Below are positions 13,601-48,150 of a stretch of DNA of 64,000 nt, one piece after another. The translations under genes and the position numbers were made by a program. Every line of letters starts with the position of its first letter. Positions within the stretch are counted from its first letter, which is position 1. The stretch comes from Bactericera cockerelli. Lineage: Eukaryota > Arthropoda > Insecta > Hemiptera > Triozidae. The notes beneath the pieces were generated by a model, which was not told the DNA's origin, did no database searches, and saw only the letters and a program-made list of their open reading frames with translations. The stretch is taken from the NCBI GenBank assembly GCA_024516035.1, contig CM044967.1, forward strand, positions 20,404,884 to 20,468,883. Reading direction: 5' to 3'.

Positions 13601-16600
13601 ACCCAATTATGCATATCTTCTATTTTATCCATTATTATAAAAGCATTAGTTTTTACTTTATATAGCTTGACCATCTGACCATTGATATATTTATTTAAGT
13701 CTCAATTTTTTTTTTTTTTTTTTTTTTTTTTATGGCTTTAACGGCAGGATTCTCACACTATGAGCTCTTCCACCCAACCGATGATTTCCTCTCAATCATT
13801 CCACAAGGCAAGGCCCGATGGTCAGATAGAAAGGGGAAAGAAAACAAACAATAAAAGTTTTTAAAAAATAGCTCTAATACTTACGTGGGAACTAGGGGAG
13901 GAGGAAGCGCGGCCTGAGGGCCCGGGGCCCCGCGGCCGCCCGGGCCGGGTCGGTTGGGTATGGCCGGGGCGGGGCGGCCCGTGGCGGGGGGAGCTGGAGG
14001 GGCGCGCGCACTCGCGGCGGAGGGGGGAGGGGCCGCGGCGGGGGGAACATTGCGGCGCGGGTTGCCTGGACTGGGGGGCGACAACCTGGAACACGTGGAA
14101 GAGCCTGTCATCTTCACAGAGGCGAGAGGGTCGCAGTGCACAACCAATGGAAATGTCCAGGTATGATCTGATATTCATGTACATCTAGTACAACTTCTCA
14201 CTTTTCTGTTTATACTGATTAAAATAGAGAGGTTAGTTGATGACATGGACATTCAGAACTATTACCTGCTGATGAGAGCAAATAAGCTCGAAACAGCTGT
14301 CCAGGTATGTTCTGATATTCATGTACATCTAGTACAACTTCTCACTTTTCTGTTTATACTGATTATACATACACAAGCAACTCTTGGCTTGTGTGTGTGT
14401 GTATGTAGCAACACTTGAAGAAATAATATTTTATGGACAAACAGAGCTCGAGTGCGTACAGTAGCATTCTGGTTGTCCTATGCATGACGTATCAAACTTT
14501 AGTTTGTATGAACTGGCAGTTTTTCTTTTTCTCAATAGCTCGACACTTTCAAAACACGTGAAATGCATCAAAAGAAATTTGTTACTACAGCTGTTGTTTT
14601 CAGCTAAATATGTCGGTATGATCGTTAAAATGAAACATCGTGAAATTAAATAATATATTATTGCCATTATGCTCTGTTATTCGCGATGCTCAGTTCAATT
14701 TCATCCAAATATTAGGGAATTTTGAAGACTACAAAAACAACTTATTCGTGCACTTTGTTTGTAAAAAATGAGTGGTGACCCATGAGTACGTTACCTTGGG
14801 TTGTCTAAACTGGTAGCCAGCCAATCATTTTTCACGGGAGGGGGGACAGGAACGGAGACAGTGGCCATTGAGACATCACCAATAATACGAAGAGCTTCCT
14901 TGCAGGCGTGATACATGCGAAGCATTTCTTCCCGTTTCAAACGCTTCTTCAGGACTTTCTTCCATCATTTGGGCCTGATAAGAGTAGAATGCACATGACA
15001 GTTTTATACTGAAGATACCTTATATGCTTTTTAGTAGAAAATAATTATTTTGCATGCAATAGATTGTGTTTTATTAAATCTTGAAAATATATTGCAAAAA
15101 AATGCGTTGCACAAGGTGAACCTGAGTTACCAAAAGTTAAGATGGATTTTATTCTTGCAATTTACAATTTACGTAACAAGCCATCAAGTCTGACCCGGTA
15201 GCTCTCTAACTGGTAATCAAAATCCGCGGGTTCAAAACACAGCCGGTTACTGCTAGAACAATAGGACTCATTATAGTCTAGTAATCCTGGCTTTTAAAAA
15301 TGCAAGTTTTGGTGTAGTTTTGATTTTTTGTACCATAGTGTATTTTGAGCTGCTGAACACGAATCTGAGGTTTGCCAACAAAAATTTTACCGGCAAATTT
15401 TTTTACAGGCAAAAAACAGGCAAAAAATTGGACTATTTTTAGTTTTTCTGAAAATATCTCCCAAGTGATTTAATAAACGGCAACACTATCTCCATACAAA
15501 GTTGTTCACAACTAAATTCCCTACATTTTATATTCTACAAAAAAAATTGTGCGACCAACCTTTGAGCTTTGAGGGCGCCCGCAAAATGCAGGCAAAAAAT
15601 CAAAAGTGGCCACATTTGCGATTTTTTAAAATTTTACTTCAAAATAACGCTCCTGACAATATTTTTGGCATTTAAAGACGTCATTGATGGCTTCCAGGCT
15701 AAAGTTTCAGACTTTTTCAGCCTTTTAGAAGGACCTTTGCAGCCTTTTGGAGTGATCACAGTCACCTGTGTCTATCTAGAACCCTGGTTTTAAAACAAAA
15801 AGTTTTGCTGTACTTGTGATTTTTGGTAATATAGTGTATTTATAGCTGCAAAGTATGAATTTGACGTTTGCCACCAAAAAAATTGCCGTCATTTATTTTT
15901 TTCAACAGGCAAAAACGGCCTGAATGGAGCTTTTTTCAGTTTTTAACAATATCTCCGAAACTGTGCATTTCAAAGCAACGTTGGGTGAATACTAAGTTCA
16001 ACATAACTGAAATTCCTACATATTATGTTCCCAATATTTTTTTGTGCAACCAACCTTTGAGCTTTGAGAGCGTCCTCAAAGCCCAGGCAAAAAATCAGAA
16101 AAGGCAAAATTTGAAATTTTTGAAGTTTTACCTCGACATAAACTTCTTGGCAGTGTGAATGATATGAATAATGGTTTAAAGGCTAAATTTTTTGACCTTT
16201 GCAGTACATCTTTGTGAGGGACTTGGATCAGGGTCCTCCATTGATGGCATGATATCGCAAAGCAAGCATAGAGCGAAGTAGGAGAGTCCTGCTTTCCTGC
16301 AGCCACAGTTTCCTGTACATTTGCAGGAAACGAGCTTCAGCAATTCGGGGGGAGCGGGGGGAGAGAGATTTAATATAGGTTCTAGACCTGTTTGAGTTTG
16401 CTTCCATCCCCATTCTTCAGGAGCTTTACTTACTCCCAACCATTGTTGCACTTGATGGTACAGGGTACACCCTGAGAGAGTGCACACGGTGGTAACGCAG
16501 CAATGTTGGAGTTGATTCTAAAGGCTACCTTGGTATAACATATGTATCGCAGATGGTTAAGTGAAGACGGACTTTTTCCACTGGACGCAAATGTATTAAG

Positions 16601-19600
16601 AAGCGTTCTCCTGCTGCCGCTACAGAGTCTTGGGACGCTTTAGAGTCTTTGAAGACATCTATAACTTTTCCAAGACTAGGACTTTTTACAAGGGTTTTTA
16701 AAAATTTTCCCTATTTCCTTGTTTAAAGAGAGCCGACGTCTTATCACACCTGCTCATTGCATGTAGAAAGAGGATGTGTTCTTTCACGCATGAGGAAGTT
16801 GCAGCTTCAAGGGGTGAATACAAAGCTGGACAAATGGTCTGCTTTCCAGGTTTTAAATAGAAGACATTGTCAACTTCACAGAGCACAATCAAGATTACTA
16901 ATATTCCCCTACTTTAGTAAAAGTCTCATTTGAGTGCGGTCGTAACAATCAGTACAGTACGCCTGCATCTTCTTCGGCCTGCTTATATTGCAAACCTGCT
17001 TCTGAAAGTTTGGTAGCAAGTAAGTAAATGAGACGACTCTTATTTCTTGGATTTGCTAGAAAATTATCTTTTGACATTGTTGGTGTCATGGTGTCATCAA
17101 AAAGCATGTCTGCAGATGAGAGAGTCCTCGTTCTCCTCATACGCTCAGCTGTCTTTGTTCCTCTTTGAATATCTCCAGGCTAGCCATCGAAGACAACTAC
17201 TGCCCCAGGATATTTGGAGATGACATACTGCATGTATCTGTCACAGTTTGAAGAGAATGATGCATTTGTAGGCCAGACAACTCTGTGTTACAGGAATCCC
17301 CCATCAATTACATATTGCACCTGACCAGTAAAGTGCTTGTTCGTCAGGGGCTTAAGATCTTTGTTCTTTGTATAGAGTGGATTTTGTTCCTTTTCTCATG
17401 CATCCTTTGTCAAAAAGTGACAAAGAATAAGGTCCTAGATCGTAGCTCAAAAAGTTTTCGAGTTTTTCGTTGGAATGCTTAGCAAATGAAATCCGTTGGA
17501 ATGCTTAGCAAATGAAATCCGTTGGAATAAAGTTGTGGGATTCACGGGGACCATTCGAACATCTCCATTCTATTTTTGTTGTCTCTTTTTACTCCTGCAT
17601 CCTTCAAAGCATGGTGTTGATCAGAGCTAGAAAGCGAAACACCACAGAAATGTTCGATTTGTTCTGACACATGCTAAATGGATGTCATCCCCATTGTCCA
17701 TCTTATGAGAACGCTTTCTCCAACACCACGACCTTGAGTAAGGCGTCAACCATTAGAAACATCAAACCTTTAAAATCAAGTGCCCAATATATAAATTGAA
17801 AATGAACTGCTTATAATGTTGAAATATAGGACAGTGGAATAGATAGGCGTTGCCATCACAAACTAATCTCACATCGACCTCACCTAGCCTGATTGGAACC
17901 GGCAAAATTTAGCAATACTCACTTAGGATGACATTTGAAAGAATAGTAGGAAATAGTTTGTTGGCCAGCAAATTATTTTTTTGCAAACACAATATTTGGG
18001 ACTCAGCAGTACAAATACTCTAGTGTACCAAAAATTAAAACTACATCAAAACTCTGATTTTTTGCCTGGGCTTTGAGGACGCTCTCAAAGCTCAAAGGTT
18101 GGTTGCACAAAAAAATATTGGGAACATAATATGTAGGAATTTCAGTTATGTTGAACTTAGTATTCACCCAACGTTGCTTTGAAATGCACAGTTTCGGAGA
18201 TATTGTTAAAAACTGAAAAAAGCTCCATTCAGGCCGTTTTTGCCTGTTGAAAAAATAAATGACGGCAATTTTTTTGGTGGCAAACGTCAAATTCATACTT
18301 TGCAGCTATAAATACACTATATTACCAAAAATCACAAGTACAGCAAAACTTTTTGTTTTAAAACCAGGGTTCTAGATAGACACAGGTGACTGTGATCACT
18401 CCAAAAGGCTGCAAAGGTCCTTCTAAAAGGCTGAAAAAGTCTGAAACTTTAGCCTGGAAGCCATCAATGACGTCTGTAAATGCCAAAAATATTGTCAGGA
18501 GCGTTATTTTGAAGTAAAATTTTAAAAAATCGCAAATGTGGCCACTTTTGATTTTTTGCCTGCATTTTGCGGGCGCCCTCAAAGCTCAAAGGTTGGTCGC
18601 ACAATTTTTTTTGTAGAATATAAAATGTAGGGAATTTAGTTGTGAACAACTTTGTATGGAGATAGTGTTGCCGTTTATTAAATCACTTGGGAGATATTTC
18701 AGAAAAACTAAAAATAGTCCAATTTTTTGCCTGTTTTTTGCCTGTAAAAAAATTTGCCGGTAAAATTTTTGTTGGCAAACCTCAGATTCGTGTTCAGCAG
18801 CTCAAAATACACTATGGTACAAAAAATCAAAACTACACCAAAACTTGCATTTATTTCGCTATTTTTGGGCTTGCGGTACTAGACTATTAGTCCTAATCGG
18901 ATAGTATAAATAAGACGATCAATTGCCCTTGATTATAAAAAAATGACGAATACAATACTTTCTATAACTTATAGGAGATGGAAATTATTTTTACAAGTAC
19001 CTGATCACCAGATGCGTACAGGTGAGCCAAGAGTTCACCATTGATGAAATCCTTAGCATTGTTTATAATCATAAGCATTATGGTTTTGGGTACGAGATCT
19101 CTGCATGTTTTAGTCACTATTTTCATGTAAGAATCCACAAGGTTTCGAATAGTTTCTACTTGTCTTTCCAGCTGAGGATCCATTGAAGAGGTGCCTTCAG
19201 TACCACCCTGATAAATCAAAAGAAGATTTTGGAGAATTTGAATGTAACATTCAAATTTCACTATTATTACACGTATTCAATCAGGTTTTATTTACATTAG
19301 GAGTATGGACATGGAATATTTACAAAATAAATAATAAAACAAAATTTGATCAAGACAGTGTAGTGCTAATGTCTACGGTATTCTCTTCCGCACCACCCTT
19401 ATAGGTGGTTTGAAAGATAATACTGTAAATTTGTGATTTAATTAATTACGTGGTAGGGTAATGTTGTATAGAGTTTGAAATCCATTTTAAGGGGTTCAAG
19501 GTCTGATCAATACATAGGATACATGCTATTTTCTTAAATGGCTGAAGTTATTGTCAACCTAGTTTTGCTTCACTGACAATTCGCCTCTGATAACACAAAG

Positions 19601-22600
19601 AGGCGTAAACAACATTTTCGAAATTTTACAGGAGAGCCAAAATGAGTTTTCTTGTGCATAAATTTTCTGTTCACGGTAGGAAAATCATCACTTCCCTGTA
19701 CCCGTGAATGACCATACGAACTTTTTCTGTTGCCAAATTTGATTATTTAACTGTGACTATCGATTTACGCCTATTTGATTTGTCTGAAAAAGAGAAAATG
19801 AGGGATACGCCTGATTTCAATTTTTGTTGTATTTTTTCTTTGGATTATAATTGGATTACGTCTATTTGTGAGAACAAAATATAGCACAAGTAGACTCAAT
19901 CCAAGCAATAAAACCGATTTCAAAAATTTGTGGTTTACGCCTCCTTGTGTTATCAGAGGCGAATTTATAGTTACTTAAATATAGGATTAATAAACATTTA
20001 GTAATTAGTACAGTCAAAAACACCGAAAAGTTTATTTAAAAAAACTTTAGTTAATGCCCTTCTAGGAGGGCAGTTACAAAGTAAAGGTATACCTATCTAT
20101 TTTTAATTTGGCCAAAAATAATATGCATTCCAACTGTTTCAAGTGTTAGTCAAATTGTTAGTAGTACAATAATCATTTATTACTATACCTCAATTCCATC
20201 CTAAGATTTGGCAGACATGAAATCAGAGAAATAAACTTTTGTTAGTACAATTGATTCATCATTCAATTACATTCAAAAGTATAGTGCTAACTAGAGACCT
20301 CTGTGCTTAGTTTGACTCAGAATCATGCATAAAGCAAACAAGAGGGGGCAAATTGAATTAGAACATACATAAAGAACATAAATATCAGAAGTCTTATAGT
20401 CTCAGTTGAGCCTAAATCTAAATAGAGCACCATACTGACACATTTATCATTGATTAGAAGAGATAGATTGGGAGGAAAAAAGAACATTGTGTGTATAACC
20501 TAACAGAAAATACTATGTGCTTTTAAGTGAAGAAAAATATTGTAAATTAATAATCATTCATGATTTTTCTTCTAGTTTTACAGGCAGCCCAATTTGAGTG
20601 ATTAATTGAAGAAAATATATGTAGGTTTGAAACTCACCTCATCGCCATTTGACTGATCGGTTGACTTTTCTGGATACACTCCAGCTCGTAGGAATGAAGC
20701 TTTCCAGGAATCTACGTCATCTTGATTTTCGCAACTCAACTCTAGTTGTTTGTAATCCTGATGGAAAAAATATATATAAAAACAAAACTTGTTGATAGAT
20801 GTAATAAATCAAAAGTTCCAATAACAATTACGGTTAATTAAATTTCAAATAAAATGTCATAAACAGAAAATATTACATGAAAGTGACACAGACACAGAGT
20901 TATGAGGTCATGTCCATAACAAGAACTTTTATATCATGAATACACTATAAATAATATCCAACTAAATGGAGTTACAGTGAAAAAAGAACTAGTAGTTTTC
21001 TTTCAACAAAATTTGATCAGCATATAAATAAAATTACTGCTGCTGCTAATAATACCCTAGGTCTTGTACCACGTGATTCAAAAAATTTCAACGATCTTGG
21101 CATGATTATAACATAATACACAACCCTAGTAAGAACTAAACTCGATTATGCCACCGTTATTTGGGCACTAAAATATCCATGCCACATTATAAAACTAGAG
21201 CAAACTCAAATTAACTGGAAGTGGAATAAAGGGTTATACCAAAAAGCCATGTGAAACTTACTTTATAGACGTTCCTGCCCTCTGGATTGAACAAAGCAAA
21301 CGTATGTCTCCGAGACATAAAACCTTGTTCAACGTCTCTCAGTTTGAGACCGTCAAGTGGTAACATGTATTTCTTTTCTCGTTCCTGAAATTTAGAGGAA
21401 ATGAATAGTCAATCATTAGAATAGTATTAATATTGTAAAATATTTAAAATTGAATATGAGTAAATAGTTAATGCTCCACCCCAACCAATACCAGAGCATA
21501 TTTTTTAGGTAGCCTCTAAATTTTAACAAATAAATCTGTCTGATGCTGGATCTTCAACACTAGAAATGATTGTATCAATCGGGTTAACCTCAGCCACAGT
21601 TATTAGTTGACATGTAATACTAAATAAAATAACGACTTTCTTACCTCTTCATCTTTGAACCAGGATATATTTTCAGATGTCAGAACGAACCAATAATCTC
21701 TGGATCCACCTTTCATAATGCCCAAATTGTGAATACACATCCAGCCTTTTCTGATTACTTGATTGCCAAGTTTTCGACCCGCTTTGTTGGAATTCTCTGT
21801 AGTTTGCTGAGCACTGAACATAACACTGTTTATTACAGCATATATCAGAAAACAAGGGACATTACAACATACAGTTAATAAATTTTCATTTTGAGCAGAT
21901 AGAAACTGTAAAATTGTGTATGCATACTTAACAACTTAATGCTGAACATGTATGAATCAAAACAATGAAAGTACTGAAGTTATTTTAGATTGAATGATTT
22001 CAAGATGATAAATAATAAACATCAATTCATTGTTAAAGGATTCGAAGTATAGTTTTAAGGTAGACACAATTTTAAATTGCTTCTGCTCAAAATGTGAAAT
22101 ACCAGAGAAAGAAGTATCTAGTATAATTTTAGCATAAAACTAATGACCGTAAATGAGATGTCTTTTCTGTATAGGGCGTTCTCCACACCTCAGCCGAGGT
22201 GTTTGATTTAACTTGATTCGTTAAATACAAGATTTTATCTCTAAAATATTCAAGATAACCAACAATAATTCAAAGGCCTTAAATCCAGTAAATTTTACTC
22301 TATCGACAAAAAAATTACATCTTTAGTATTTTTGGCTATAGGTCCACTTAAGTATGATGGCTAGTTTTAATCATTAAATTTTAATAATGAATTCTGAACA
22401 AAACCCGCCCTAAAATTACAATTTTCCTATGACCAATCCACTCGAACATTATGACTGGTCAAGTATATTTGAAAGATCTTTATTAAATTAAACCTACATA
22501 TAGCCAGCGTCGATGGCATGTTGAATACACCGGTTCCCTTCAGAACACCGAAGTTAAGCGACATCCAGCGAGGTTAGGACTTGGATGGTGACCATTCAAA

Positions 22601-25600: not shown

Positions 25601-28600
25601 TCTTACATCAATAAATTCACAAAAATACTGTGGGGGTAAGGATGGGATGAGAATAGCTCTTTCTGTGTTAGCGATTTTCCAAATTGATAGAGACATAGCT
25701 TCCACTTGATGAAATGTTCCAAGTAATATTTCAAAGTCCCAGTATTGTGTTGTCTAGCTTTTGATTAGGACCTAACTGTTTTATTTAGGGCAGAGATAAA
25801 GGATACCCGAAGGTTTATGTACGAGTCTCACACTTGAGCATGAAATGTGAATAAATTTAGGAAAAATTACTGAATTATGAATTTATTTCTTTAAATGTGG
25901 TATCAATTGATGCCATATGACCCAAAACGCCAGAAAATATTCTTGTGAGCAATATATTGACCTTCCAAAACGCCAGAAAATATTCTTGTGAGCAAATATT
26001 TAGACCTTATCCCAAACATTGATATCTCGGGTGCAAGGATATTGAACTTATAGCTGGTATAAAGCAAAGAACGACGAACCTAATTTAAAAATAAAATAAA
26101 AATGACTCCCTATTACGCTGACATTGGTTCTTCTCCTTCTCTTTCTTTCACTCTCCCTTTTCCCAACTACTGGGGTCGGTCAAATAACCTCAACCTCTTC
26201 CTCATGTTTAAGGTTGTTTGGTTCTGTACTCCTACTTCCACTTTTAAAGACTGGATGCCCTTTCTAAAGTCAACCCTGTCAAGGGTACCAACGATTAGTG
26301 TTACTGTCTTTTGGCTAACAAAGCTGGTACCGTATAAAAATGTCCATTTTTGTGCTTCTGAGTAATTTTATTTTTCTTTTATAAACTTCTTTGAGTGATT
26401 TTTAATTGTGATTCCTGTTAAATGTAAATCCCCATAATGTTGGTACTCTATCAAAACAAAAATATCTTGAAAATTTTATATACAGTAATAGTTGTCAATT
26501 TTAGTCCACAAGGAAATTCTGGCTTTAAATAGATTAAAAAAGATATTAAATACTTGAAAAGAGTTTCTCTTGTAAACTGAGTAGTTGTTAAAAAGGATTA
26601 GTAGCAAACTATTGGCCATTATATTACAAGCAAGCAAAAAAATCAAATTTGAAAAAAAAAATATCTTTTAATTTTATACAATCAACTACAACTAGACAAA
26701 ATAAAACAAAGAATACACAATTATTTTTAAATTTACGTTTAGGTATGTGATTTTGGACTGATTTTTTATCCAATAAAAAAATAATTGAGAAAACAAAATA
26801 AGAAAGTATTTCATAAAACGAATGTGTTTCCTACTTCACTTACTTTGCAAAGCCAATGAAATCTTCATGATTGGTATTCATATACGCTAATTCGCAATCG
26901 ACTAGGAGGCTAATTTGTTCTTTACATTGTTGTTCACGTTGCCTGACGTAAGAAGTGATTATCCGTTCAGTTTCTTCTCGTAATCTCGGATACCTCGACA
27001 TCTGAAAAAGACATATTATACACCTAGTAACATTCAACATTACATAAATATATTAATGCAGGGATGTTTTGGTTTAAAAATATTAAAAGATAACAAAACT
27101 AAATAGGTGTCATTTCTGGGGTGATAGTGTAATTTAGAATAAAATAATCCATTTTTACAACGACTAGCGTCAGGACTTATCTGACGGATGTCTCATCATA
27201 CTATCATATGAAAAAATCTGCAACTGACTGATGCAAATGGTTACAACACCTGAGACTATAGAAATTGATGATGATAAATTGCTATAGGCCTAAAAGAAGA
27301 GTCTGATAAACGTACCTTATCTGTGCAAATACGAACAACATTAGATAATTCCAACACTACCAGATCCACACACTTGATGGCAGGTTCTTTCAACCTAGAT
27401 ATTTGCTTCTTTACAATGGCTTCGAAGGCCATGTCTGGAGTAAACAAACCCACTCGGATACCATGAATGTTTCGAATAGCAAACGCGATTTCTCGTCGTA
27501 ATTCCTTTTCATCAATTCCATCTTGACAATTTCGAATGGAAATCTTTCATGGAACAATCGATTTATCTTGGCGCCTCCAGACAGCTCCATGGTGTTGATT
27601 TGTGCCGAACCAGAACCCTCGATCGTGCGTTCGAAATCGGACTGGAGTTGCTGGATCATCTGTAACATTGCTTTTGTTTTGATAGAAGGATCATCGGGTC
27701 GAAAGTGTTTGAACTGTTCGACATCTTTCTCCAAGGTAAGAAGTTGCTTCTGAAGACGATCGCGAAGACCTGGTAACGTGTCCCGAATGTGATTAGTAAG
27801 CTGCTGATTGAGCACTCGTTGCAGATATGGAGTTCCAAGTCTATCTGCTAAGTGACGATATGAGGGGTGCCTGCAAATAAAAAACAAAAAAATATATTCT
27901 TAATTCGTACTGACGAATTGAATTGAATGGAATTGAATTGAATAAGATAACTTTATTTACATAAATTGAATATACAAATTAAACGTCTCCTAAGCTAATG
28001 ATAATTCTAAGCTAATGATAACGAGTGGCGAAAAAGATTAAAGTTACAACAATTATTAATAAACTAAAAATATTTCAAACGTCCGGATTACAGAAATTCA
28101 GAGAGATGTTGAAGGTGGAGACCTAGAAAAGCACAATGCCTAATAGATCACAGAAGATCATTTGATATTTTTTACTTCCGATATTATAGAGTATAGCAAG
28201 AATATTTTAACCAGACTATTTCAAAATGTTTGGAAATGGTTCTCTAGACATAAAATGGCGTGACTTGAATTGGTCTTGGAGTATTACAACCCATTTTTTC
28301 CTGTTGACTAAATCATGCTGAGAATGGCCTTTTCAATCAACATGGAAGAACAACATTATCACATTTGGGGGTAGCAAGATCACTACCACTACTAGAGCAT
28401 TTTTTCTATTATGTATAGTTGGGAGTGGTCACCTTTCAAACATAATTATAGACAGACAAAAAAACTTACCCTAAAAAGAATTTCCTTTCTGCAGCCATGG
28501 CAGCTTTGATATCTTTCCTGCCTTCGATATCTTTTTGACTTCTGTTCACAACGCCAATGTACCCTCGCCGAAGAGGTAGCAATTTATTTTCTAGGATTTC

Positions 28601-31600
28601 CCTAGCATCAGTTCCATCATCCATTAAATCCAACTTGGTGATCACACCAATAGTACGGACACCTGCGAATGTTAGAGAATCATTGTAAGCTCAACAGGTC
28701 TTGAAATATTTGAAAACAATGGAGCAATCCAACCAATCTCCTTTTTCATTGAATTTCCTAATTAATTTCACCACAATTTTATCATCAAACATAATTTATA
28801 GCTATCAACTAAACCTTTCTATGGGTGTTTGAATCCCAAATTCAATTTCTGAATTTGATCATATTGTAACACAAGTTCAATTTTTAAATTTAACCATATT
28901 GTACTTCCTGAATAATTCTTAAGTTTATACAAAATCACCCAAATAATTCAAAACATGGTTAGCTGTTCAGAAAGGATTAAAGCACTAGTGTCACATCACT
29001 ATTTCTGTTTATACTGTGATATAATAACTATTATCTCCATTTTGAGCCACATTGCCAAAATACAAAACCAATATCTCAAGTAGCAAAATTTAACATACGT
29101 ACTTTCTCTAAGAACATAGGTTTTATTGTCAAATTAGAATTCTATCAAAATGGTGATCTGTTATTGGGTAACCTGTGTAATGCATGCAATAGGTATAGTA
29201 TGCATATTAATTAATTATAATCTTATTGTATAAGTATGTGATAGCATTAGTGCGGTAAAATAAAGACTCTTCGAATAAATAATTGTGCCCCTCGAAAGCT
29301 GTGATTGTATACACATACACATTTACGACAAGTACTAACAAAATTATAATAAAATACAAATCATCACTACTTAATTCTCAAACTTGGTTCCAACAAACAA
29401 TACAATAAGTAATAAGGTAATTTTAAATTACCAAGGAACACAAAGTTTTTAATTGATCATTGTTTTAATATTCAAAAGAGTGTAATGTCTTCAAATTTAC
29501 AGATGAACATAGATTCTTTTATAGTTCATGTTCAATGTTCAAAAATAAAACCTTTTTTGAATGAATTAGAGTTAGTCATTCTAATATCATTAATATGTAA
29601 CCAAATTTCATACAGAATAAATAGGTAGTAAAAAAAATCCCTAAAAAAATTAAACACACAAGGAGGAGAATGATTCTTTCACATATACTATGTAACTATC
29701 AAACCATGCAATTGAAGATATTATTAATATACTAAAAATACAACACACTAATGTAAGACACAAAAATAATAGAAGCAATTAGCATTCAGAACACTCAGTA
29801 GAAAAAAATTCATGCACTGTCGAAATGTTTACAAAAGTTATAGATGAGTTACTTTTTCTGTTGCCAAATCAGGTTAATAGTAATTTAAGTTACAAATGTA
29901 CCTCATATCTTTTAAGCCATGGTGCTCTTAAAAAAAGTCAATTAAGTCCACAACACCTAACTTTAGGTTAACAGGGTCCTCAGTGTTTAAAGCCAACCCT
30001 TTTTCAATTGAACTTCCGATTCTACACCATATTTACAACGAAGAAATTAATAAATAGCTGAGGCAGGCTATGCAACATTAATATTATATATTTGAATTTT
30101 TGTCATTAAAAGATTTGTATAGTAACTGACCTGAGAGAAAAACAGGCATTTTACCATAACTTTTTAACAAAGAAAATGGCACACTGCAACTTGGGCATAG
30201 TGATAGCTTTTGAGTTGCTGAACCCACCATTAAAATACATGCATCTACTATGTAAACAACTTGTATCAAATACAAGTACTAAAACGGTATACAGAACCTT
30301 GTTGGAAAATCTTTCAGTAAGTTATTGGTCCCGTCTGTTCAGTTTTGTAATTAGAAACATTTGTGCTAGCCAATAAACATTATGATTTAAAATTATTACT
30401 ATTAGCACAACCACAAATTTATCTTTACTAAAATTGTCATTGCTATTATTTTATGATGTACTATTTTATTATATTCGTTAGTGTTACATGCACTAGAGTG
30501 AATGTATCGAGGTTTCATCGTTAATAGGTTTGATAAGGATTTCTAAGTCATTAATGTGTCTATTACATTAAATTATTAACAGGAGGAGGACAGAGTGTGA
30601 AGGCTTTATGCAAATGGTTTTTTTCAGTAAGGAAAATACAAAGAACAGCCGAACTGAGTATTTCAGTCGGTAATAGGATTAATGCAGAGAGGCAAAAAAA
30701 GAAAAGCAACAATTACTCCGAAAGGAATTAAAGACAGGGGAATGAAAACAAGATAGAAAAGAAAACACCAAATGTTAACAAAAAAACCTTGTCCCACAAT
30801 TTTTTTTAGTGATGAAAAATTAACAAACCTGGAGGGTCAACCTCTTTGGCCAGTTTTAAAGCATCTGAATTGGCAAGATCGGTATTAGCGGGAGTTACTG
30901 CTAATATCAAACAATTATCTCGCTTTATAAATTGATTTATCATGGATCTGATTTGGTGTTCTATGTCTGCAGGTTGATCACCTATGGGTACTTTAGTCAT
31001 GCCAGGGAGATCAACTAAAGTTAAATTGAGCACTGGAACACAAATTTACAAGGTTCTATCTACTTCATGTGCAGAAATATTTATGAACTAAAACAACATA
31101 AAGATGAAAGATCCAGAGAAATTGAAACATAAAGAACATAACTGGCTTTGTAGAGTCTACAGGTAAAATAGAATATTAAATCTTGATACATTTGTTTTTT
31201 TTACTAAAAAATAATTTCTATGTACACACAAAATTTTAGTTAAAACATCAGTATCAAGATGAAGAAATTATATCAATGCTGATAGTCTATTCTGAAAATA
31301 CAGTTCTTTTAAATGATTCCTCTGCTCACATTTCTCTGCAAAACCTATTAATTAGAGAAATAGTATAATATGATGTATTTGACGATGAAAATCGTTGGTT
31401 GAAAGATTGAAAGAAACGATTTTATAGAGCACATCATTATTTACGACCAAGGTTCTTTTCTTTGACTCTACAAGGATTCCGACATAAAGTAAATGTTCTC
31501 CTATAAACGACACAAGTGGGCTATATTAAGGTACAAATATAAAGTATATTGATGTACTTTTAACTCTGAAAAGTAGGTAACAAATAAGTTATCTTTTTTA

Positions 31601-34600
31601 ATCTTGTATCAAAAACAAAGGCTTGAGAATAATTTTCAGAATAAACTTTCATTTATAAGCAAATGACATCCAAGCATCGATACTAAAGATCATTGATGAT
31701 AGAAGATTCATGTGTTTCAAAATTCTAGTTCCACATCCAAATGATTACCATCGGGATCAACTTGTTTGGAAATTTGCAAAGCATCTGAAGTCGCCAAATC
31801 AGTATTGGCTGGAGTAACAGCCAGTATGAGACATGTCTCTTTCGTGATGAATTGGAAGAGCATGTCTTTGATTTGTTGTTCAATATCAAGTGGCTGATCA
31901 CCAACCGGGACTTTGGTTAATCCAGGTAAATCGATGAGGGTTATGTTCAACACTAGGAATATTACGTAAAATGATATGAGTAAATGTATCATCAAAAGAA
32001 TTGTGAAGAGTAGCAATATTTTGAGACAAACATTCTGTAATTTTTTATGCATGATGGGAGAAATCTGTTTACTTTAGTTTATATCTATGTAAGTTTTCAT
32101 TTCATTGAATCGAATGAAAAAGTATTTAGATTCGTTCCCATTATCATTATTTTCATTTTCTCAAACTCCTCAATTACCTCCTGTATTGTCATTTGTCAAA
32201 GTGTCTATGTAATTTAGAAATACTGCTATTTGATTCACATAGAAGAGTATACTCCTCGTACAGAGAACTTTCCCGAGAGAAAAGTAGTGGTCGTAGTAGT
32301 AGTGGTATTATAATTTAACAAAATTATACCAACACAAAACAATGTTAGTAATGATACCTCAGGAACGTTAGTTCATCAATAATTGCTCCTCGTTGGTTAC
32401 AACCCAGGAAGCAATGAGAAAAAACAGCTGGGACACGCCACATCAATTATTACAAACCTCACATTGCACAGTTTTCAGCGAGCGTCATGTTCAGCATCGA
32501 TGTTGATCGTGTTTGGGCGACTAACTATGATGGACGAGTTTCAAAGGTCATCTACTCGGAAAAACACCCACCAAAACCAAGATGTGTGAGGTTTTTGTTA
32601 TCAATAAAAATAAAATTATTGAAAATTAAGCCTACTCGATTATAAATAAATGCACATCGTTAGATATTTTTCTATCTGTTTGTAATTTTGACAGTAAGGG
32701 CTATACAAAAATTGGCTACATAGAGTAATGTGTATGAAAACATAAAGTGGACAGATTTATAGGGCCCTGTTTTTCAATGTAATGAAAATAGAGACAATAT
32801 GCTTGCGGAGTAGATAAATGAATATGTACAATTGTACATGAGCAATACCAAGATCTGTTGTCACAGCTGACAATAGAAGCTGTTCTGTCTCATTCTCTTA
32901 CAGACTATGATTTTAATTTATCGATCTCTCTCTCTTTTTCTATCAAACCATCTCTCCAAACTGTTTTCATTTCAACTATCTATTCTGTGATTATTTTAGT
33001 CTCTGTATTTCTATTTGAGCTACAATATCTATCTGCAACCAGTAATGAGTTACTTTTGCATTATGACACCCATCGAAAATTGCACAAATTCTTTCGTGTA
33101 ACATAATGAAAGTAAAACTAACATTTACTGTTTGGACCTGGGATACTTTATTCGAAATACTAGCATAAAAAATCTTTGATTAGTATCATTTTAGAAATTT
33201 CAAAAATGTCTTGGTGTGTGAAATATGTTTCTTGATATGTCCACAGCAATTGAACAGTTGATTTTTCAATGATTGAGTTTCTACATGAGTTTAATAAAGT
33301 CACTTGTAACAACTAAACCTTTGAAAGTTTAGAACGCCCTGAACATCTTTTTTCTTCTTAGAACACGCCATGATGAAATGATCTTACCATTAGGAGAATA
33401 TACCCGTAAATTAATAGGAACATTGGATATTCCTTTATTAGACCCGGTAATCCGGTCAGTTTCCGCTTCAATTTCTCGCCTCACTTCATCGAAGTCGACG
33501 AACTTCTTGCCCTTACAATGTAAGAACTCAGCATACTCTGAAACAGATGAGAAGAAACAATTTGTCAACAAACAAAAAGATTTATCAACAGAAAAGTTGC
33601 CTCATCGTGCACTACTGTAGCCAGCCAGGGAATCCTTTAAATCCAAGCATTACGAGGTTTGGCTATTAAGTTCGTAGACGCGAGCCGCTACGCAAAAGCT
33701 GTCCATGCTAGGAAGATATGATGAAGATCTTTAGAAAGCTTCAAGTCTTGTGTTTTGATTGATAGCTGTCACATGCCTGTACTGTAATTAGTTCTGTTGT
33801 AATAGCCTAACGCGCAAGACACCTTTTTTAATTTTGCCGGAATTATGATTGATACAAACATTGAGCAACGAGTGATTATTGAATTTTACGTAAAACTTGC
33901 TGGTAAAACTTTTTCTTTGTTAAAGACAGTGTACCAGGAGTCATGTTTGAAAAGATCAACGCTTTATAAGTGGTTTAAACGGTTTCAAGGTGGTTAGGAA
34001 GATGTTGAGGACGATCCACGTTCTGGTCGCCCCCAAACCTCAAAAACTGACGAAAACATTGAAAAATTTGGTGTTATGATTCGTTCTGACCGTAAATTAA
34101 CTCTAGGACTAATGGCTGATACACTTAAAATTAATAGATAATGTGTGAGACAAATTTTGCAAGAAAATTTCAACATGACAAATGTTTGCGCAAAAATGGT
34201 GCCATGCGCCAGCCCACAGTGCCTTCTCCGTGAAGACGTTCCTATCCAAGTACAACATCCCAGTGTTGGAACACCCTCCTTAATCACCCGACCTGGCCCC
34301 GTGCGACTTTTACTTATTCCCAAAAATCAAATCTACCCTGAAAAGTACCAGATTTGACAGCGTAAATGACGTTAAGAAAAAACCGGCAAAAGTCTTGAAA
34401 GGCCTCACACAAAATGACCTCCACCACTGTTTCGATCAATGAAAAATTTGCTTAGAGCGTTGTAGAGATAGAGGAGGGAGTACATTGAAGGGGATAACTA
34501 CTAAAGTTGGGTAAGTTAAACACACATCGTTTTATGGAAAGAGTCTACGAACTTAATAGCCAAACCTCGTATACAATGAGGGTAATAATTGACCATGTCA

Positions 34601-37600
34601 AAAATATAGCTGATGGAATAATACAAAAAGCTTTGTGATGACATGTTGACTGACCATTTCTGTAGAAATCCGAGCCAACAAAATTGATCAGTTGATCTAA
34701 AATCTCCACATGTTCCTAACGTTTGGTATATAAAAAAAAAAACGTTACAGTTTGATCTGAGCTTAGGAGTCAAAGCTGGAATTAATAGACGTTTACTGGA
34801 ATTAATGGACAAGGATAAACTAGTCCTCTCCAAAAGTCGGACTATAATGCGCTGTGATTGGTCGGAACTCCCACTTCAGGGAGTCTAGCTTATCTTTACT
34901 GTAATCCTTTTTATAATTTCGCCCTTGCTAATTCCTCTGTAGAAAGCTAGATTTTCTGTATTGTTTTAAATTTTAACTGTCAGTGCTGACTCCTGCTTGT
35001 GAGTCCAAACCTTCTCTGACCCATATTCTTTTGTTTTGAACGTATTTTTTGTTTGACATAAAATTCATTGTAAATATGTATATCTTGTACTTCACAACAA
35101 TAAATGAGATTTTGTTTAGACTGTGAGAGTAAAGGGACTCAATCTCATCCTCGCGGGATAAACAGAGTATTGTATTGTATTGTATTGTATTGTATATTCT
35201 TTGTTTATTTTTGCCCATATTCGTTGCCTTTGTAAGGTCTACTACTTACTGTATGTGTGGGTTTCTTACCTGTCATGCTATTTATGAGCTGCAGGACCAA
35301 GGGTCTCCTGGTGACAATGCCTGACCCACGCGGGAGGAAATCCCTGGAATGAAAGAGAAACAATAATTATATTGATAATTAAATAAAAGTTACATAATGG
35401 TGTGAATTATTTTAAAACTAGAAGTAACCTTTTTCCGAGTTGGTAGCGCACATGGCCTTTACACAGATGACCCAGGTTCCAATCTGGGATTCGAAATTTT
35501 TCGGCTCTCAGACTTTGTATGGTGCGGTCCACTCATACATCGCGAGGAAAAATGAGAAGCAATTTGTATGGATAGCTCTCGGTGGGAATCGAACCCACAA
35601 CACAAAGCTTCAGATTAACAAGAAGTGGCGTCAAGAAAGGCCCTCAGAAACACTTATCCTCCCATTGCCTACAATAATGAAATTCTACTCAATCTAGGTC
35701 TTTCTTCCTTAGCGGTCATAATTCAAAATTCCTTGCCATTTTCCTCAATACATAACACCTACAACCTATAATGAATTATGTATAATGCTTAACACAGGGT
35801 GTCATATGAAACCACTAAATACGATCTACCTCTAAAACAGTAGATCTTTTTCCTTTTGAATATTAAATTGAAAGTATTTAAGGAAATATATACACAACTA
35901 CTCAACCTCTATCAATTAATAGTACCTATTTAAATTAGATCTATAGTGACCAAAAACAAAAAAAAAACCCATTAACATGCAGTGGTAGTTGAGTGATTAA
36001 CTCGATACGACCTTGATTACCTGACTACTCATCTAGGGTAATCAAGACCCTCATTCCAGAAAGCACTCTTATTCTCAAAATCTCCCTTTCAACCGTCAAA
36101 TTTTGTTCAAAAAACCCAATCAGAGTGTTGTTTAACAGTTGAAACGGAGATTCTAGAATTGTCAGAGTGAGAGAGCTTTCTGAAACAAAGCCCATGTACC
36201 TCTACTGTTAGTTATGTTAGTTCGAATTTCAACCAATACATGGAATATCTGTTTGAAAAAAATAATGTCAGCAACAATTGCTGGAAGAAGGGGACATAAT
36301 AGAAGTCTTAATGGGGTAGTAAGTTCTATTATTATTATCTATTTTCTGAACACCCTATATTGTCAAAGTAGGTCATGAATGTCGGAATATTATGGAGTGC
36401 ACAATCCAAACTCGTGTCTTTTGTTCTTTGGTATAATGTATGGCACAATCTCTCCCTCCTAATCCTTCCTTCCAGGCTTTTCTTATTCACAATGTACCTA
36501 TGTACATTGTACATCTAGTAAAACTTCTCACTTTTCTGTTTTGATTGACTGACTGATAGACAATAACTCCATAAAGTTTATTTTAGCTTGGTACATGTTG
36601 GTTAATTAACTTGCTAGGAGATGATTAACAGATATGGTGCCACCTTAGTTAACATAGCTCATTGGCGTCCTTCACATGTGGGTTTTTGATACCGGCTCTA
36701 TTTATAAAAAAGCCCCTATATGGGTTTACGGTGCAGAATGTGTTAACAGGGTGGGCGTTAGAAACGGCATCCAGCCGTAAACTCTAGAAGAAAGAGTACC
36801 AAAACCAACTCACTTCAACCAGAAAAAGGTTGAACAGCACCAACCTCAATTAGGTTTGGAAAAAGGCAAAGTGAAAGAAGAAGAATATGTTGGTTAATTA
36901 AACAAAATTATCGTCGTAAATAAAGGAATAAACTTCAAAATTAAAATAATAGTAGTATGTATTCTTGACAAATATTTTAAATTTTGCTTTTGTTTAGTGC
37001 TTAAATTTATATATAGGGCTTGGCCCGTATATACAGGGTGATTCAGAAAAGTACCGTCAAACGTTAACCACATATTCTATGGGCTAGTTAAGGAGGGGTC
37101 AACTCTATAAAAGAAAGTGCGCAAATGCCTCCTAACGGAGGTACACGCCCCTTAAGGTGTTTTTAAACAATCGAAATTTTCATTTTAACGGCTTACCTAT
37201 TTGGGATATCGCAATGTGGTAAAAAAATTCACACCCAATCCCTTTACGACCTATACAAAGTTCCTACAATACAAGACATATACATACAAAAACTTACATA
37301 CTTTACACTTAAACAATCTAAAAACTGGACTTTGAACACGAACATTTATAACACAAGAAGACCAAATCAAGTACAAACTAACAGAATACATAAAACACTG
37401 ACAATGCGACATTTTACTTACCTGGGTAGACGAATATACAATTTACTACCACAGTCGTTAACAATTCAAACACAAAATTTCAACAACAAAATAACAAAGA
37501 AATTTGTGTCCAACAATGGTTAATTGAGGACCAAAACAAGGAAACAATCTGCAATCTTTTAAAACAATGACAGTAATACCTAAATCTATTCATAATTATT

Positions 37601-47865: not shown

Positions 47866-48150
47866 AGTCGAACCTGGATATAAGAGAAACTGGATATACG
47901 AGAAACCTGGATATAAGAGAACTGGATATACGAGAAACCTGGATATAAGAGAAACTCTGATATAAGAGAAACCTGGATATAAGAGAAACTATGATATAAG
48001 AGAAACCTGTATATAAGAGAAACCCTGATATGAGAGAACTGGATATACGAGAATCCTGGATATAAGAGAAACCTAGATAAGAGAAATTCTGATATAAGAG
48101 AACTGGATATACGAGAAATCTGGATATAAGAGAAACCTTTATATAACTTC
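47866..48150. repeat. Minisatellite of GGATATAAGAGAAACCT-like units
   Basis: About 16 tandem units of 15-18 bp (GGATATAAGAGAAACCT, variants with ATACGAG or CTGATATAAG). It begins ACAGTCGAACCTGGATATAA, which looks like a pogo-type terminus. The 105-residue frame of repeated SYIQFSLISEFLLYPGF-like text on the minus strand is a by-product. Confidence 0.9.

What the first reader, a model, noticed from the sequence alone, without database searches (positions are those of the whole stretch)
30829..31952. Duplicated, phase-matched exon 4 in the dynamin GTPase domain: a predicted mutually exclusive pair swapping switch II
Two exons of exactly 204 nt, same phase, 716 bp apart, both intact, encode alternative versions of residues 130-197 (G3 DLPG, switch II and the next helix). 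By my count 48 of 68 residues agree; catalytic motifs are unchanged, while the helix after GDQP differs most ([19 protein letters not shown] versus [19 protein letters not shown]). Mammalian dynamins are known for alternative exons in the stalk and tail; I know of none that exchanges switch II. It would give two dynamins with different GTPase kinetics or different partners from one gene. Both donors (GTAATC, GTTTGT) are off consensus, fitting regulated splicing.
Basis: partly seen in the sequence, partly recalled or inferred. Interest (0 to 1): 0.9.

Follow-up and report, generated by a model that had tools for sequence, protein, structure and literature searches.

The report
Swappable catalytic exon in insect dynamin
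An insect gene for dynamin, the protein that pinches off membrane vesicles, carries two interchangeable versions of the piece that codes for its working core, so it can probably make two dynamins with different motors; the second version is also found in many other bugs, cockroaches, locusts and springtails.

Summary
On the minus strand of a dynamin (shibire) gene lie two intact 204-nt exons of equal phase, 716 bp apart (31749-31952, first in the transcript, and 30829-31032); 48 of 68 residues agree. dN/dS is about 0.14 by LWL85, with dS near or past saturation, so both copies are old and constrained. In nine aphid or adelgid species, annotated isoform pairs differ at 17-21 of these 68 residues and at none of the other ~805. 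Proteins with only the 4b-type segment occur in Hemiptera, thrips, cockroach, locust and springtails; eight draft arthropod gene models hold two diverged copies. A Hemiptera-only duplication is rejected (AU p = 0.0004); a deeper date is likely but not settled. The exon carries switch II and the trans-stabilising loop used in GTPase-domain dimerisation. Ten full-text searches, nine aimed at this, found no paper describing the pair; a 2010 paper says invertebrates have one isoform. Exclusive use in the window's species, what enforces it, and any functional difference remain untested.

The parts
31749..31952 (-). Exon 4b, upstream member of the pair ([11 protein letters not shown]...[31 protein letters not shown]); 204 nt, residues 130-197
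30829..31032 (-). Exon 4a, downstream member ([11 protein letters not shown]...[31 protein letters not shown]); 204 nt, residues 130-197
31033..31748 (-). 716-nt intron between 4b and 4a; only chance-level similarity to the flanking introns and no exact complementarity with them above the 95% level of shuffled controls
31953..33387 (-). Intron upstream of 4b (1435 nt)
28663..30828 (-). Intron downstream of 4a (2166 nt)
42892..43055 (-). Exon 1, start codon, P-loop GGQSAGKSS
35270..35343 (-). Exon 2 ([14 protein letters not shown]; switch I by recall)
33388..33537 (-). Exon 3, common splice donor for 4b/4a
28470..28662 (-). Exon 5, common acceptor ([13 protein letters not shown]4)
27316..27870 (-). 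Exon 6 (stalk region by recall); contains a one-base frame break within 27505-27521
26844..27001 (-). Exon 7 (stalk region by recall)
21645..21813 (-). Exon 8 (start of PH domain by recall)
21262..21384 (-). Exon 9 (PH domain by recall)
20638..20757 (-). Exon 10 (PH domain by recall)
19001..19207 (-). Exon 11 (GED by recall)
14795..14974 (-). Exon 12 (GED end by recall); contains a one-base frame break within 14931-14947
13944..14087 (-). Proline-rich tail exon (aligned part only; limits not determined)

Best explanation
The window holds the dynamin (shibire) gene of a sap-feeding bug, closest among the proteins seen to the psyllid Cacopsylla, with a tandem pair of mutually exclusive exons, 4b then 4a. 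Each mRNA takes one, giving two dynamins identical except for residues 130-197: the G3 motif DLPG, switch II, the following helix, a strand, the trans-stabilising loop and the next helix. Catalytic residues are the same in both; the surrounding helices and loops differ. Most likely this tunes how fast the GTPase fires when two G domains dimerise across rungs of the dynamin helix, or which partners the G domain meets. Shown: the pair, its constraint, its age beyond Hemiptera, and one-or-other use in annotated isoforms and short contigs of relatives. Inferred: exclusive use in this species, the regulator, and the kinetic consequence.
For: Two intact, in-phase, equal-length copies. Third-position excess 20/9/39; dN 0.24 (NG86), 0.25 (LWL85), 0.18 (ML); dS 1.77 by LWL85, not estimable by NG86, 13.8 (saturated) by ML. 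Nine species with same-length isoform pairs: 17-21 differences inside exon 4, 0 outside, 0 gaps. 60 of the 120 listed rows carry a single 4b-type segment, 18 of them from contigs of 2.0-4.2 kb with little room for introns. 4b is more conserved than 4a in 8 of 10 pairs among five Hemiptera (4b 60-67 of 67 residues shared), for example window-Cinara 66 vs 57 and window-Homalodisca 66 vs 60, so it does not look like a decaying copy. Sites that separate 4a (n=16) from 4b (n=21) in the set compared: 133, 159, 169, 189, 193 without overlap, 184 with one exception. Hemiptera-only duplication rejected, AU p=0.0004. Asp180 of dynamin-1 acts in trans on Gln40/Ser41, and D180N severely impairs assembly-stimulated GTPase (PMC3561337, passages); the exon encodes that residue (window 181; numbering) and differs at window 184, three residues on.
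Against: No reads or cDNA from this species. Both exons are multiples of three, so joint inclusion or joint skipping stays in frame and nonsense decay cannot enforce exclusivity. Eight arthropod gene models contain two copies; they look like gene-predictor joins, but a double-inclusion isoform cannot be excluded, and one (Daphnia magna P0007) comes from a contig of only 5.75 kb. No competing intron complementarity was found by a simple exact-match scan, no U12-type site is apparent by eye, and 716 nt seems too long for steric exclusion (inference), so the enforcing mechanism is unidentified. The gene as assembled has two one-base frame breaks, probably base-calling errors but unproven. In 2 of 10 hemipteran pairs (Cinara-Aphis 66 vs 63, Adelges-Aphis 63 vs 60) 4a is the better conserved copy; window-Frankliniella is 59 vs 59 and window-Gryllus 61 vs 60 in favour of 4a. 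The signature residues do not hold outside the set compared: Daphnia 4b has Asn184 and Lys189, and the fly Chironomus 4a has Thr169. AlphaFold models gave the same secondary structure in exon 4 for both isoforms, but at low confidence, so they decide nothing.
Confidence: 0.86

Rival explanations
1. Both exons can be included together (or both skipped), so they are cassette exons; double inclusion would give a dynamin with a repeated G3/switch II block.
For: In frame either way. Blattella, Gryllus, Tigriopus, Darwinula, Notodromas, Daphnia magna, Armadillidium and Strigamia models hold two diverged copies; in 7 of the 8 (not Notodromas) the first copy runs straight on (DPDV or DPEV).
Against: All nine clean isoform pairs are one-or-other; 0 of 18 short-contig 4b proteins and 0 of 2 short-contig 4a proteins (P0126, P0187) carry two copies. 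A repeated strand-switch-helix-strand block would be expected to break the G domain (inference).
Confidence: 0.06
2. One copy is a non-functional leftover of duplication.
For: Weak 4b donor; no transcript data from this species.
Against: Open frame, codon-position pattern and 60-67 of 67 identity of 4b among five Hemiptera; intact 4b in isoforms of many species.
Confidence: 0.03
3. Assembly artefact: collapsed haplotypes or a misjoined paralogue.
For: The assembly carries two one-base frame breaks in this gene; a search of the own genome for other dynamin copies did not complete nine times.
Against: Copies are only 67% identical in DNA and their flanking introns are unrelated; two diverged copies occur in independent genome models, with 4b plainly first in Blattella and Gryllus.
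Confidence: 0.01
4. The pair is real but arose separately in several lineages (convergent exon duplication, or repeated gene conversion), rather than once.
For: With 67 sites the tree is weak (UFBoot 54 for the group holding 28 of 28 sequences I had labelled 4b); the first copies of Darwinula and Armadillidium fell outside it and both Tigriopus copies inside. Not rejected: Daphnia-own duplication (AU p=0.58), hexapod-own (0.068), pancrustacean-own (0.10), myriapod-own (0.053).
Against: Hemiptera-own is rejected (p=0.0004) and insect-own marginally (p=0.048); a single 4b clade of insects, springtails and cladocerans is not rejected (p=0.19); the same exon limits are implied by the junction of the joined models.
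Confidence: 0.25

Closest known systems
Vertebrate DNM1/DNM2 exon 10a/10b (PMC2916854; abstract and other passages)
   Same: Dynamin gene, two tandem homologous exons used one at a time, developmental shift in mouse brain.
   Different: That pair lies in the middle domain (residues 399-444) and the paper says it is conserved in vertebrates and absent from invertebrate dynamin. In the window that region lies in one exon, E6, and has one match.
Automated dynamin 'isoform X' models
   Same: For aphids, an adelgid and a thrips both 4a-only and 4b-only proteins are already listed; for whitefly, cockroach and locust I saw 4b-only isoforms.
   Different: Automatic annotation; no description of the exon swap was found in the searches.
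Mutually exclusive exons in G-alpha genes (amphioxus preGNAI exon 6 / preGNAQ exon 5; vertebrate GNAO exons 7-8; PMC5896119, passages)
   Same: Local exon duplication inside a GTPase, in protein-interface regions.
   Different: Heterotrimeric G protein, not a dynamin; lineage-specific. That these exons cover switch II is recalled; the term does not occur in that text.

Membership tests
Mutually exclusive tandem-duplicated exon pair | Adjacent homologous exons of similar length | tested here: met
   204 and 204 nt, 67% DNA identity, 48/68 residues
Mutually exclusive tandem-duplicated exon pair | Same phase and usable splice sites to common neighbours | tested here: met
   Both join E3 and E5 in frame; AG/GT present
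Mutually exclusive tandem-duplicated exon pair | Exactly one included per transcript in this species | not testable with these tools
   No RNA data for the window's species
Mutually exclusive tandem-duplicated exon pair | Exactly one included per transcript in relatives | tested here: inconclusive
   9 clean isoform pairs of 12 aligned (the other 3 are partial or have gaps) and 18 of 18 short-contig 4b rows fit; 8 arthropod gene models do not
Mutually exclusive tandem-duplicated exon pair | A known enforcing mechanism (frame/NMD, short intron, U12 mix, competing RNA structure); common, not defining | tested here: not met
   In frame, 716 nt, GT-AG sites, no exact intron complementarity above shuffles; the RNA test was simple
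Classical dynamin (shibire/DNM1-3) | GTPase, stalk, PH, GED and proline-rich tail in one gene | tested here: met
   Exons match fly dynamin (recalled sequence) in order from residue 1 to 806; nearest relative P0012 aligns to dynamin-1 over residues 3-854
Classical dynamin (shibire/DNM1-3) | G1, G3, G4 motifs and trans-loop Asp in both isoforms | tested here: met
   [22 protein letters not shown]
DNM1/DNM2 exon 10a/10b pair | Alternative segment at residues 399-444 | tested here: not met
   That segment has one match, inside E6; only exon 4 has a second match on the coding strand

The most novel reading that the evidence does not exclude
An exon switch perhaps 400-500 million years old that exchanges both the cis catalytic segment (switch II) and the trans-stabilising loop of dynamin. 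It would be ancestral to mandibulate arthropods, kept in many hemimetabolous insects and crustaceans, and lost in Holometabola, so that Drosophila genetics could not see it. Many arthropods would then run endocytosis with two kinetically distinct dynamins from one gene.
Probability: 0.4. Interest if true: 0.8.

Novelty: new member of a known kind. Interest (0 to 1): 0.62.

Why it matters
Dynamin is among the best-studied GTPases, yet the alternative exons I know of lie in its stalk and tail. A conserved natural swap of the catalytic core gives two sequences, both kept by selection for a very long time, that differ at about twenty sites around an identical active site: a direct test of which residues set assembly-stimulated GTPase rate. 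If the loss in Holometabola is confirmed, Drosophila shibire would not represent arthropod dynamin in this respect.

Tried and rejected
Own-genome search for a second dynamin: the genome search (PF00350, own) sent nine times, never answered, so 'single-copy' is not claimed. Competing intron structures: exact-complement seeds extended between the introns before, between and after the pair (ends trimmed), against 100 dinucleotide shuffles per comparison; none of four comparisons exceeded the 95% level. G-U pairs and gapped helices were not scored. Intron homology between copies: only chance-level blastn pieces. Leptinotarsa 'isoform X1' (P0065) falls among 4b copies in the tree and was first read as a beetle 4b isoform; alignment shows a separate gene, 476 of 637 residues identical to P0207, so it was dropped from the age tests. 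Proteins with two identical copies (P0003 Tetraodon, P0010, P0121 Saccoglossus, P0122) and long two-segment models (P0011, P0124, P0233, P0234, P0235) were not counted as the pair. Cordylochernes (P0123) shows a second, partly predicted copy, but apart from the 1350-residue Medioppia model P0233 the chelicerate and nematode rows show one segment each (P0011 aside), so no chelicerate claim is made. Of 12 isoform pairs three are not counted as clean: Homalodisca (23 inside, 16 outside, 934 gap columns), Cinara (18 inside, 3 outside, 233 gap columns), Frankliniella (17 inside, 0 outside, 11 gap columns). I chose the pairs, one 4b and one 4a row per species, same length where there was one. AlphaFold models have low confidence in the G domain (mean pLDDT 61.1 and 64.5), so no fold search was run. 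A first tree run failed on a length error and was redone; the free-tree likelihood differs between (-1668.6, -1658.7), so tree searches were not fully converged. YN00 failed. One search tested only the longest open piece of each of 13 exons for duplicates (one chance-level extra hit on the coding strand, E11, E = 0.20; one on the other strand, E9); one search repeated it with the spliced protein. My notebook (entry 3) says the order is always 4b first; bear this out plainly only for Blattella and Gryllus.
Full report
What is there. The window contains a classical dynamin gene on the minus strand, from exon 1 at 43055 to a proline-rich tail exon near 13944. Exon 4 exists twice: 31952-31749 (4b, first in the transcript) and 31032-30829 (4a), each 204 nt, separated by 716 nt. 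Both have AG acceptors and GT donors, both are open in the frame that continues from exon 3 and into exon 5, and both give residues 130-197. They share 136 of 204 bases and 48 of 68 residues. Differences fall 20/9/39 over codon positions. dN is 0.24 (NG86), 0.25 (LWL85) or 0.18 (ML); dS is 1.77 by LWL85, not estimable by NG86 and saturated by ML (13.8); YN00 failed. So the duplication is old and both copies are held by selection on the protein. With the spliced protein (residues 1-765) as query, exon 4 is the only part with a second match on the coding strand.

Whose gene. The nearest protein among those fetched is from the psyllid Cacopsylla melanoneura (P0012, 96.7% over 769 columns with 4b), so the window is probably from a psyllid or close relative; the species is not known to me. 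In the assembly exons E6 and E12 each hold a one-base frame break. P0012 is intact there. I take the breaks as base-calling errors; that is inference. They lie far from exon 4.

Relatives. Searching 5.8 billion proteins with the 4b segment gave 6294 hits, of which the best 120 were listed. By six signature residues, 60 of those 120 carry one 4b-type segment, 42 one 4a-type (vertebrates included), 7 one intermediate, and 11 two segments. The single-4b rows include Cacopsylla, Cinara, Homalodisca, Daktulosphaira, Macrosteles, Bemisia, Planococcus, aphids, Rhodnius, Halyomorpha, Periplaneta, Schistocerca, Frankliniella and three springtail genera. Eighteen come from contigs of 2.0-4.2 kb that encode 503-888 residues and leave little room for introns; I infer that they are transcripts (species not given). 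All 18 have one copy. Of the 11 two-segment rows, 8 are arthropods with diverged copies (P0001, P0002, P0004-P0009); in 7 of the 8 the first copy ends DPDV or DPEV, the in-frame run into a second copy, and in Blattella and Gryllus the order is plainly 4b then 4a. Notodromas and Strigamia have a 4b-type first copy and an intermediate second; Daphnia magna and Armadillidium an intermediate first and a 4a-type second; Darwinula two intermediates; Tigriopus two 4b-types. I read these as gene predictors joining both exons.

The swap in single species. For 12 species I aligned a 4b isoform to a 4a isoform. In nine (Aphis gossypii, Rhopalosiphum maidis, R. padi, Acyrthosiphon pisum, Metopolophium dirhodum, Diuraphis noxia, Sipha flava, Adelges cooleyi, Melanaphis sacchari) the two proteins have equal length, 17-21 substitutions inside exon 4 and none outside. 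Frankliniella has 17 inside, none outside and 11 gap columns elsewhere. Cinara and Homalodisca pairs are partial or ill-predicted and do not count. This is the strongest evidence that the exons are exchanged within one gene. These are automatic annotations; that such models rest on RNA-seq is my recollection, not something I saw.

Age. In a 70-sequence tree of the segment the 28 sequences I had labelled 4b beforehand (22 single, 6 first copies of joined models) fell in one group, UFBoot 54, together with Tigriopus copy 2 and Leptinotarsa P0065; the first copies of Darwinula and Armadillidium, not so labelled, fell outside. P0065 is a separate gene and was removed. Forcing all hemipteran copies together is rejected (AU p=0.0004); an insect-only duplication is marginally rejected (0.048); hexapod-only (0.068), pancrustacean-only (0.10), myriapod-only (0.053) and Daphnia-only (0.58) are not. 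Forcing the 4b of insects, springtails and cladocerans into one clade is not rejected either (0.19, 24.8 log units below the free tree). So the pair very probably predates Hemiptera and perhaps insects; an origin in early mandibulates fits but is not proven. Of 63 holometabolan rows in the lists carry one 4a-type segment, P0124 two 4a-type segments, and the P0065 paralogue an intermediate one. Because a close holometabolan 4b should outrank 4a rows in the 4b search, loss there is likely, but lists were capped at 120 and Drosophila itself was not among the rows. The louse Polyplax row is 4a-type by eye.

What the segment does. Numbering by alignment of P0012 to dynamin-1 is window minus one. 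The exon encodes DLPG (G3) and switch II, then helix 151-164, strand 170-175, the loop with Asp181 (human Asp180) and helix 186-194; both AlphaFold models give these same elements, but with low confidence in the G domain. In dynamin-1, Asp180 acts in trans to orient Gln40 and Ser41; [quoted passage not shown] In DNM1L the equivalent D190 is listed as trans-stabilizing loop, G-dimerization; the table row gives 28 in what I take to be percent of wild type (column heads not seen), while the text says D190A still hydrolyses GTP efficiently and faster at low GTP (PMC3747075, passages). The G3 Asp and Gly and the trans Asp are the same in 4a and 4b. The separating sites in 16 4a and 21 4b sequences are 133 L/I, 159 S or A/D or E, 169 N/T, 184 N/T (one exception), 189 K/Q or M, 193 E or D/Q, S or T (Holometabola, crustaceans and Strigamia left out of this count). 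Position 184 sits three residues after the trans Asp. Against over-reading: Daphnia 4b has Asn184 and Lys189, and Thr184 with Lys189 is ordinary in the chelicerate and nematode dynamins listed, so neither residue alone marks an unusual enzyme. The Drosophila shi-ts2 change G141S (PMC10926519, passages) falls, by the recalled fly sequence, on the Gly of GDQP in this exon, a residue identical in both window copies.

How exclusivity might work. Both exons are multiples of three and the 4b-4a junction is in frame, so nonsense decay does not help. The donors are unequal: 4b pairs worst with U1 of 13 donors (-5.1), 4a is 8th (-7.5). Exact intron complementarity did not exceed shuffles. A weak-donor competition with a tissue-specific splicing factor is my guess. 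[quoted passage not shown]

Literature. Ten full-text searches, of which one search was about residues of the dimer interface, found no description of this pair in their listings. PMC2916854 (abstract and passages) says the DNM1 10a/10b pair is not in invertebrate dynamin and that invertebrates have only one isoform. In four papers on mutually exclusive exons searched by term (PMC3228551, PMC3303723, PMC9013439, PMC9741552) 'dynamin' does not occur in the main text; 'shibire' was asked in the first three only and does not occur. Subscription papers and supplements were out of reach, so a mention there is possible.

Verdict. Observation confirmed, interpretation supported, mechanism of regulation and function open. 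It is a new member of a known kind (tandem mutually exclusive exons), at an unexpected place in a heavily studied enzyme.

Noticed in passing
window 27505-27521 and 14931-14947: Exons E6 and E12 of the dynamin gene each have a one-base frame break, while the psyllid relative P0012 is intact there; probably base-calling errors in the assembly.
   Followed up: partly
window 15298-16099 and 18053-18852: Inverted repeat of about 800 nt, arms 94-100% complementary, inside the intron between E11 and E12; probably a foldback or paired transposable element (guess).
   Followed up: partly
window 47871-48146: Tandem array of a 17/32-nt unit, about 17 or 8 copies, upstream of exon 1.
   Followed up: no
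window 41500-41784: Two tandem copies of a 144-nt unit in intron 1.
   Followed up: no
window 33806-34326: Open stretches in intron 2 that look like a decayed mariner-type transposase (recalled resemblance, not searched; ORFs).
   Followed up: no
window 20679-20780 (+): The antisense strand of exon 10 reads 38% like the peptide of exon 9 (E = 5e-4, 0.09 with the whole protein); presumably coincidence.
   Followed up: partly
protein P0065 (Leptinotarsa): A second dynamin gene in the potato beetle, 75% identical to P0207 over 637 columns, with partly 4b-like residues in its exon-4 segment; origin unknown.
   Followed up: partly
protein P0123 (Cordylochernes): A pseudoscorpion dynamin model holds a second, partly predicted exon-4-like copy, hinting that the pair may reach chelicerates.
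   Followed up: partly
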